Shown piece after piece: positions 370-14,839 of a stretch of 64,000 nucleotides of DNA. The translations under genes and the position numbers were made by a program. The stretch is from positions 1,116,001 through 1,180,000 of the forward strand of contig NZ_CP042912.1 of NCBI RefSeq assembly GCF_008087665.1. Reading direction: 5' to 3'. Source of the DNA: Mariniblastus fucicola. Its GTDB lineage: Bacteria > Planctomycetota > Planctomycetia > Pirellulales > Pirellulaceae. Every line of letters begins with the position of its first letter. Position 1 is the first letter of the stretch. The notes below the pieces were generated by a model. The model searched no databases. It was not told where the DNA came from and saw nothing but the letters and a program-made list of their open reading frames with translations.

Positions 370-1782
370 CTAGATGTCGTAGTAAAGACAAAATTCAAAT
401 GGATGTGGTCGACGGCGCATGGATTCTACTTCCTGGTCACGCTTGTGCGCAATCCAGTGCTGCACGACGTCGCGCGTAAACACGTCGCCGCGAAGCAAAA
501 ACTCGTGATCGAATTCGAGAGCCGCGAGCGCTTCGGCGAGCGACCCTGGAGTTCGCGGAACATCTTTCAGTTCCTCCGGCGGCAAATCGTAAATATCTTT
601 GTCCAGCGGTTGGCCCGGATCGACTTTGTTTTCGATTCCATCCAAAGCCGCCATCAGAATTGCGGAAAACGAAAGGTATGGATTGCCACCCGCATCGGGA
701 CAGCGGAACTCGACGCGTTTCGTCGCCGGATCGGTGCTGTAAACCGGAATGCGGCACGCCGCCGAACGGTTTCGCTGCGAGTAAGCCAGGTTGATCGGTG
801 CTTCAAATCCTGGAATCAATCGCTTGTAGCTGTTGGTGGTTGGATTGGTGAATGCCAGCAGTGCAGCAGCATGTTTCAGAATCCCACCGATCGCATACAT
901 CGCCGTTTGGCTCAGCCCGGCGTACGCGTCACCGGCGAAAATGGGTTCGTCTTCTTTCCATAGCGATAGATTTGTGTGCATGCCGGAACCTGCCTCGTCG
1001 AGCAGCGGTTTGGGCATGAACGTGGCCGACTTTCCATGTCGCGCGGCAACGTTTTTCACGATGTACTTATAAGTCATGATGTTGTCCGCGGCGCGAACAA
1101 GCTCGTCATACCTCAAGTCGATTTCCGATTGGCCAGCAGAGCCAACTTCATGGTGCTGGCACTCGACCGTCAAACCGCAGTCGATCATCGTCTGCATCAT
1201 TTCGTTGCGGACGTCCATCAGTTTGTCGACCGGTGCACTGGCAAGGTATCCTCGCTGATACCGCGGACGGTAACCAGAGTTCGGGCCAAGATCGGTGCCA
1301 CGATTCCAGGGGCCTTCGTCGCTGTCGATGTGGTACCACGCAGCATTGCGGGTCTGGTCGAACTGGATGTTGTCGAAAATGAAAAACTCAGCTTCCGGTC
1401 CGAACCACGCGCGGTCGGCAACGCCGGAGCCTTTCAAATAGTTGACGGCTTTGCGAGCGATGAATCTTGGATCGCGGCTGTAGTCTTCAAACGTGATCGG
1501 GTCGACGACGTTGCAGATGATGTTCAGCGTTGGCAGTTCGGTGAATGGATCCAGAAAGCAAGTGTCAGGCTGAGGCAGCAACAGCATGTCGCTTTCGTCG
1601 ATACGTTGCCATCCTTGAACGCTTGAACCGTCGAAGCCGATGCCTTTTTCGAAAACCGCTTCGCCAAACATGGACACCGGCACGGTCGTGTGAGCCCACT
1701 GGCCGAGGAAGTCCGTGAATCGCAAATCGACGGCGCCAACATTGTTCTCACGGCAGTAAGCAAGTACTTCTTTGGGTGTCAA
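370..1782 (-). CDS. glnA: Type I glutamine synthetase
   Basis: Catalyses ATP-dependent ligation of ammonia to glutamate; a cytoplasmic dodecamer. Seen: the beta-grasp start (AVDLRFTDFLGQW), catalytic motifs GFDGSSVQGW, HHEVGSAGQSEID, KPLLDEAGSGMH and NPTTNSYKRLIPGFEAP, and the adenylylation-site motif KDIYDLPPEE with its tyrosine at about residue 398. Starting at TTG 1782-1780, with GGAG five bases upstream, gives 470 residues, the normal bacterial GlnA length; the frame stays open upstream to 1932 but the extra residues resemble no GlnA. The adenylylation tyrosine suggests control by GlnE-type adenylylation (family knowledge). arsC follows closely downstream. Confidence 0.95.
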   Translation of the reverse strand: MTPKEVLAYCRENNVGAVDLRFTDFLGQWAHTTVPVSMFGEAVFEKGIGFDGSSVQGWQRIDESDMLLLPQPDTCFLDPFTELPTLNIICNVVDPITFEDYSRDPRFIARKAVNYLKGSGVADRAWFGPEAEFFIFDNIQFDQTRNAAWYHIDSDEGPWNRGTDLGPNSGYRPRYQRGYLASAPVDKLMDVRNEMMQTMIDCGLTVECQHHEVGSAGQSEIDLRYDELVRAADNIMTYKYIVKNVAARHGKSATFMPKPLLDEAGSGMHTNLSLWKEDEPIFAGDAYAGLSQTAMYAIGGILKHAAALLAFTNPTTNSYKRLIPGFEAPINLAYSQRNRSAACRIPVYSTDPATKRVEFRCPDAGGNPYLSFSAILMAALDGIENKVDPGQPLDKDIYDLPPEELKDVPRTPGSLAEALAALEFDHEFLLRGDVFTRDVVQHWIAHKRDQEVESMRRRPHPFEFCLYYDI

Positions 1783-14590: not shown

Positions 14591-14839
14591 ATGCAAATCA
14601 AGATCATCCACTGTCCGACCTGACAGTCTTACGTTCCAAAGGTGGCGAGTTACGCTGCCACGATTAAGGACGCGTTCGGCATTGAACCTGAAATTGAAAC
14701 GGGTTCGCGAGGTCAGTTTGATGTCCTTGTTGACGGTAAGACCGTCGTTTCGCGTAAAGGCGGTTTGATGGCACTGTTGCTTCGCAAGCCCTGGCCCGAT
14801 CGCGCAGAAGTCGTCAACTCTATTGAGGCAAATTCTTGA
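14591..14839 (+). CDS. SelW/Rdx-family selenoprotein; in-frame TGA at codon 11 read as selenocysteine
   Basis: Reading ATG 14591 to TGA 14837-14839 in one frame gives 82 residues if the TGA at 14621-14623 is decoded. The product begins MQIKIIHCPT, then Sec, then QSYVPKVASYAATIKDAFG, matching the thioredoxin-like Rdx family whose redox motif is CxxC or CxxU just after the first beta strand. The rest (RGQFDVLVDGKTVVSRKGG and a final helix) also fits. Codons on both sides of the TGA are conserved in style, arguing against a random stop. After the TGA, 18 nt precede a stem GTGGC/GCCAC (14642-14661) with a 10-base loop starting with G, compatible with bacterial SECIS geometry. The likely role is thiol/selenol redox. 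Conventional gene finders would miss it or call only the last 65 codons. SelA/B/C/D are not in this window. Confidence 0.8.

What the first reader, a model, noticed from the sequence alone, without database searches (positions are those of the whole stretch)
14591..14839. Hidden selenoprotein: in-frame TGA at a CxxU redox motif
Seen: an 82-codon frame continuous except for TGA at 14621-14623, placed exactly where the Rdx/SelW family has the second residue of its CxxC/CxxU motif (HCPT then Sec). A stem GTGGC/GCCAC begins 18 nt after the TGA and its 10-nt loop starts with G, which fits the published bacterial SECIS rules as remembered. Established: SelW-like Rdx proteins occur as selenoproteins in bacteria. 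Inference: this planctomycete makes selenocysteine. The gene would be truncated or missed in automatic annotation.
Basis: partly seen in the sequence, partly recalled or inferred. Interest (0 to 1): 0.78.

Follow-up and report, generated by a model that had tools for sequence, protein, structure and literature searches.

The report
Hidden SelW-like selenoprotein gene in planctomycete

Summary
The finding holds. Window 14591-14839 (+) is an 82-codon frame with one in-frame TGA (14621-14623) at the second position of a CxxC/CxxU motif (HCPT-U), over Pfam's Rdx cut-off. The genome has tRNA-Sec, SelA, SelB and SelD over curated cut-offs. Twelve rows of one clade (window included; three genera of one family) all have the TGA at the same codon and a start 30 nt before it. 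pN/pS is 0.22 before the TGA and 0.33 well after it; in codons +7 to +11 synonymous change collapses (pS 0.19 against about 0.75). That stretch is the SECIS hairpin, GTRGCG-AGTTA-CGCYRC, and over 60 planctomycete loci it covaries strongly. The predicted fold matches solved SelW-related proteins. SelW-like CxxU selenoproteins are a known, abundant marine family (PMC1088965, PMC2398784, passages), so this is a new member: a divergent planctomycete clade below NCBIfam's cut-offs, in which no match found lacked a TGA. Sec insertion and redox function are inferred, not measured.

The parts
14591..14839 (+). selenoprotein gene of the Rdx/SelW kind, 82 residues (ATG 14591-14593, stop TGA 14837-14839)
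   Evidence: translation with TGA read; Pfam Rdx 26.7 bits, cut-off 22.6; 11 further clade rows
14612..14623 (+). CxxU redox motif, Cys-Pro-Thr-Sec
   Evidence: aligned with the CxxC of the genome's own Cys-type Rdx protein L001
14621..14623 (+). TGA codon read as selenocysteine (inferred)
   Evidence: TGA in 12 of 12 clade rows at the same codon
14642..14658 (+). bacterial SECIS hairpin: stem 14642-14647 with 14653-14658, loop AGTTA 14648-14652, loop starts 24 nt after the TGA
   Evidence: synonymous change collapses here; covariation over 60 loci, 51 distinct

Best explanation
The frame is a genuine selenoprotein gene of the Rdx/SelW kind. The ribosome reads TGA 14621-14623 as selenocysteine, brought by tRNA-Sec with SelB and directed by the hairpin at 14642-14658, and makes an 82-residue thioredoxin-like protein with Cys-Pro-Thr-Sec at the turn between the first strand and the first helix. 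By analogy with SelW it is probably a thiol/selenol redox protein; substrate and partner are unknown. Shown here: the frame, the machinery genes, the conserved TGA, protein-level selection on both sides of it, the covarying hairpin, the predicted fold. Inferred: the actual insertion of Sec, and the redox function.
For: tRNA-Sec 70.1 bits (gathering 47) and ARAGORN tRNA-SeC; SelB 355.7, SelA 555.4, SelD 265.1 bits, over cut-offs. All 38 matches in 32 of 147 relatives contain one TGA; 12 of 12 close rows have it at the same codon. pN/pS 0.22 before and 0.33 well after the TGA; pS 0.19 in codons +7 to +11 against 0.74-0.76 elsewhere. Hairpin: 91.2% of cells paired, 55 cells with changes on both sides, covariation score 0.482 against 0.142 in shuffles (0 of 500 as high) and 0.01-0.21 when slid. 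The TGA residue aligns with the second Cys of the own Cys-type Rdx, CTKC. Fold: all 17 PDB chains with E <= 0.001 come from 2oka, 2obk, 2p0g, 2fa8, 3dex and 2ojl, of which 2p0g and 2fa8 are titled SelW-related; mouse SelW 2npb is rank 22.
Against: No measurement of Sec. The third stem pair is broken in 19 of 60 loci. The gene is patchy: 10 of the 28 genomes of the own genus have the clade's form (drafts). Five of the 32 genomes with a TGA match have no SelA over the cut-off. The Pfam search of the whole own genome did not list the window gene. NCBIfam's SelW-like models score it below cut-off. No conserved gene neighbourhood.
Confidence: 0.95

Rival explanations
1. The TGA is a true stop: the gene is a decaying pseudogene, or a shorter protein starts downstream (GTG 14642, 65 codons).
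For: A GTG frame of 65 codons exists after the TGA. Frames of this sort with CxxU or UxxC are not rare in the window (7 of 82).
Against: Codons before the TGA are under protein-level selection (pN/pS 0.22), with His, Cys and Pro invariant in 12 of 12 rows through several synonymous codons. The only damage is the TGA itself, at the same codon in all 12.
Confidence: 0.03
2. The TGA is read through, but another amino acid (Trp, Cys or another by near-cognate reading) is inserted.
For: The computations do not see the inserted residue.
Against: The genome has the whole Sec machinery; TGA is also the final stop of this gene; the position aligns with a Cys; a covarying hairpin with G in the second loop place lies 24 nt downstream, inside the loop and spacing limits quoted in PMC13188914 (passages).
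Confidence: 0.02

Closest known systems
Bacterial SelW-like selenoproteins (Rdx family, PF10262, CxxU)
   Same: Size, CxxU, TGA with a downstream hairpin, thioredoxin-like fold; the family is reported as Sec-rich and abundant at sea (PMC1088965, PMC2398784, passages), with few or no Cys forms in Sec-using organisms (PMC1794560, passage)
   Different: One more residue between Sec and the SECIS loop codon than in most SelW-type rows (24 against 21 nt); C-terminal part SRKGG...KPWP in place of SK...FPE; below both NCBIfam cut-offs
The genome's own SelW-type paralogue (L002 1498-1728)
   Same: CxxU with TGA, hairpin with an AGTTT loop
   Different: 33% identical over residues 2-57; outside the window clade in the tree; third stem pair broken
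The genome's own Cys-type Rdx (L001) and solved bacterial SelW-related proteins such as 2p0g and 2fa8
   Same: Rdx family, same fold as predicted here
   Different: L001 has CTKC and no TGA; 22% identical to the window protein; the solved chains are 13-22% identical in the fold alignment
Campylobacter-type SelT/SelW/SelH proteins (NF041051)
   Same: Best NCBIfam model by E-value (8.2e-10)
   Different: 38.8 bits against a cut-off of 88

Membership tests
Rdx / SelW-like family (PF10262) | Profile match over the curated cut-off | tested here: met
   26.7 bits against 22.6 with Cys at the TGA; the six-frame search of the genome did not list it
Rdx / SelW-like family (PF10262) | CxxC/CxxU at the turn between strand 1 and helix 1 of a thioredoxin-like fold | tested here: met
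   motif at residues 8-11 between strand 3-7 and helix 14-29, mean pLDDT 90.8; PDB matches
NCBIfam SelW-like models TIGR02174 and NF041051 | Score over the curated cut-off | tested here: not met
   24.4 of 34.2 and 38.8 of 88 bits
Bacterial selenoprotein gene | Genome makes and inserts Sec (selA, selB, selC, selD) | tested here: met
Bacterial selenoprotein gene | In-frame TGA aligned with a Cys of a homologue, and conserved | tested here: met
   12 of 12 close rows; aligned with Cys of L001, a distant homologue; no close Cys homologue was found
Bacterial selenoprotein gene | bSECIS as quoted in PMC13188914: loop of 3-9 nt with G in the first two places, stem of 4-16 bp, 16-37 nt from the TGA | tested here: met
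   loop AGTTA, stem 6 bp, 24 nt; bSECISearch itself was not run
Bacterial selenoprotein gene | bSECIS energy of -7.5 kcal/mol or lower (PMC13188914) | tested here: inconclusive
   -5.5 for the 17-nt stem-loop, -12.3 for 55 nt with another pairing
Bacterial selenoprotein gene | Sec residue present in the protein | not testable with these tools
   needs 75Se labelling or mass spectrometry

The most novel reading that the evidence does not exclude
The window gene belongs to a distinct Rdx clade of Planctomycetota (WP-type: GSRGQFDV ... SRKGG ... KPWP) that curated SelW-like models miss, that exists only as a selenoprotein in this phylum, and that shares with the SelW-type paralogues one phylum-wide SECIS signature (AGTTA/AGTTT/GGTCT-like loop on a covarying 6-bp stem). 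It may serve a redox partner different from SelW's and be kept only where Sec is made.
Probability: 0.5. Interest if true: 0.45.

Novelty: new member of a known kind. Interest (0 to 1): 0.36.

Why it matters
Small genes of this kind are easily cut short or missed in annotation, and this one lies below the curated SelW-like cut-offs. It shows a divergent SelW-like clade kept as a selenoprotein in several planctomycete genera, and the aligned hairpins give a usable SECIS model for finding more planctomycete selenoproteins. It adds no new mechanism.

Tried and rejected
Frame and motif as evidence on their own: rejected, since 7 of 82 comparable read-through frames of the window have CxxU or UxxC; the other six have no Pfam match.

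Stability of the single hairpin as evidence: no signal (z -0.25). A comparative test was used instead.

In the window sequence alone it is nevertheless slightly the more stable and the minimum-energy choice. Replaced by the stem that pairs 6/6 in 12 of 12.

Gene neighbourhood: eight window neighbours against the ten loci gave only weak sulfatase matches (22-30% identity) in L057, L058 and L062, so no functional hint. Promoter and terminator scan: none found.

PDB by sequence: one chance match, E 0.78; by fold: SelW-related chains.

Literature: papers with selenoprotein, planctomycete and SelW terms: one, PMC1794560 (passages seen). 'selenocysteine' with 'Pirellulaceae': 0 papers; 'Mariniblastus' with 'selenium': 0 papers. 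'selenocysteine' with 'planctomycet': 40 papers, 20 listed, of which only PMC1794560 and PMC4807772 were opened, as passages. The supplementary tables of PMC4807772, which list planctomycete selenoprotein candidates, were not seen, so a SelW-like gene may be among them.

Full report
What is there. Window 14591-14839 on the + strand is a frame of 82 codons broken only by TGA at 14621-14623 and ending in TGA. Read through it gives MQIKIIHCPT-U-QSYVPK..., a CxxU motif. With C at the TGA it passes Pfam's Rdx cut-off (26.7 against 22.6 bits) but not NCBIfam's TIGR02174 (24.4 of 34.2) or NF041051 (38.8 of 88). The six-frame Pfam search of the own genome listed two Rdx genes elsewhere and not this one, so it is a marginal member by that profile. 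The window lies in a single-contig genome of 6.57 Mb, 95% complete.

Chance. Read-through frames are cheap: 82 TGA codons in the window have a start within 40 codons upstream and at least 60 open codons downstream, and 7 of the 82, this one included, have CxxU or UxxC. The other six match no Pfam family at E <= 0.01. The observation therefore needed outside evidence.

Machinery. The genome has tRNA-Sec (70.1 bits, gathering score 47; ARAGORN tRNA-SeC with anticodon tca), SelB (355.7 bits), SelA (555.4) and SelD (265.1), each over its curated cut-off. They lie at about 3.48, 3.89, 3.97 and 4.28 Mb (tRNA, SelB, SelA, SelD), not together.

Homologues. Searched with the protein, 32 of 147 genomes (own included) have a match at E <= 0.001; there are 38 matches, each with one TGA inside. 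Twelve rows, window included, are close and full length (58-67% identity to the window): ten from the own genus, of 28 genomes of that genus searched, and two from other genera of the family. In 12 of 12 the TGA is at the same codon and an ATG (7) or GTG (5) lies 30 nt upstream. With the 12-row alignment, 54 of 392 genomes of the phylum matched, with 56 matches, and each of the 56 has a TGA inside (at most 13 candidates a genome were scored). The letters of the CxxU place were read for the 30 loci, for L002 and for 29 of the 30 loci (the thirtieth, L063, is the window again); 7 rows and 25, L002 not counted among them, were not read. The queries had Cys at this place, so the search did not favour TGA. 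SelA over the cut-off is found in 27 of the 32 genomes with a match and in 62 of the 115 without (Fisher p 0.002). For the 12 close rows it is 11 of 12, against 78 of the other 135 (p 0.03); the twelfth, G022, has a SelA fragment of 245.1 bits at a contig end. Relatedness is not corrected for. The other four of the five misses (G002, G003, G004, G019) are drafts of 80-92% completeness.

Selection. Over the 12 close rows pN/pS is 0.22 for codons -9 to -1, 0.26 for +1 to +6 and 0.33 for +12 to +69 (its label says +70). The stretch before the TGA is thus selected as protein. In codons +7 to +11 pS falls to 0.19, from 0.74-0.76 in the other three stretches: GCG, AGT and TAC are used in 12 of 12, GCT in 11 of 12. 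Of 71 columns tested for codon uniformity, codons +8 to +11 are four of the six with the lowest p; the other two, +28 and +54, lie outside the hairpin. Common ancestry contributes to such uniformity, but the neighbouring codons vary.

The SECIS hairpin. The frozen codons form GTRGCG-AGTTA-CGCYRC, at 14642-14658 in the window. To test it beyond the clade I took 60 loci: all 30, 29 of the 30 (L063 dropped as the window again) and L002. They were placed by the loop codon AGT, GGT or AGG at codon +8 or +9, not by pairing (L081 by hand). On the 51 distinct rows 91.2% of cells pair (shuffles 72.7), 4 pairs have changes on both sides (shuffles 2.3; 3 of 500 as high), 55 cells have changes on both sides (20.5; 0 of 500), and the covariation score is 0.482 (0.142; 0 of 500); slid by 1 to 3 bases it is 0.01 to 0.21. 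The tool warns that related rows can exceed all shuffles; the slid control keeps relatedness. The pair next to the loop is C-G in 31, G-C in 28 and T-A in 1 of 60. In L090 Asp and Ser codons stand where most rows have Ala or Thr and Ala, and the stem is kept. Against: the third pair is broken in 19 of 60 (A-C 15, T-C 4), 18 of them SelW-type rows and one, L067, not. The bacterial model quoted in PMC13188914 (passages seen) asks for a 3-9 nt loop with G in the first two places, a 4-16 bp stem, 16-37 nt spacing and -7.5 kcal/mol; the corrected hairpin meets the first three and not clearly the last.

Protein. AlphaFold2 on 11 sequences gives mean pLDDT 90.8 and pTM 0.80, with the motif between strand 3-7 and helix 14-29. 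All 17 PDB chains with E <= 0.001 come from six entries, 2oka, 2obk, 2p0g, 2fa8, 3dex and 2ojl; two are titled SelW-related and one putative Se binding protein, the others I recall as Rdx proteins; mouse SelW 2npb is rank 22 (E 2.4e-3). In a three-row alignment the TGA residue falls on the second Cys of the own Cys-type protein's CTKC. Redox function is inferred from motif and family.

Place in the family. In a tree of 61 rows the 12 close rows lie on one side of a branch (95/67; 94% of 200 bootstrap trees), inside a wider group of 28 rows (92/81) with 16 rows from other classes of the phylum, apart from the SelW-type rows to which the own paralogue L002 belongs. The tree has few columns, 26 of 58 inner branches are open, and the Cys row is very long. 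The genome thus has three Rdx genes seen here: two with TGA (window, L002) and one with Cys (L001).

Known or new. SelW-like was the most abundant selenoprotein family of the Sargasso Sea set (48 genes; PMC1088965, passages seen) and heads the GOS table with 427 Sec and 56 Cys forms (PMC2398784, passages seen). That it has few or no Cys forms in Sec-using organisms is in print too (PMC1794560, passage seen). Sec genes and selenoproteins are reported in other planctomycetes (PMC4807772, passages seen). So this is a well supported new member of a known kind. No paper on Sec in Pirellulaceae or on selenium in Mariniblastus came up in the held library, which lacks most subscription journals.

Noticed in passing
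L002 1498-1728 (G000:C1, about 4389685-4389915): A second Sec-type SelW-like gene of the same genome, starting 12 nt after a gene for a LON substrate-binding-domain protein (L002 784-1485; Pfam PF02190), so possibly co-transcribed.
   Followed up: partly
L021 328-2520 (G000:C1, about 4274854-4277046): SelD is the C-terminal part of a 730-residue frame whose N-terminal part matches Pyr_redox_2: an NADH-dehydrogenase-like/SelD fusion of the sort mentioned in PMC2398784 (passage).
   Followed up: partly
SECIS hairpins of L002, L038-L042, L044, L047-L050, L067, L080-L082, L084, L085, L089, L092: The third stem pair is A-C or T-C in 19 of 60 loci, the 3' base always C; it may be a tolerated or even recognised mismatch in SelW-type SECIS elements.
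   Followed up: no
L090, hairpin at 1602-1622 (-): Stem GCCGAC/GTCGGC kept with Asp and Ser codons where most relatives have Ala or Thr and Ala: RNA structure seems to have steered protein change.
   Followed up: no
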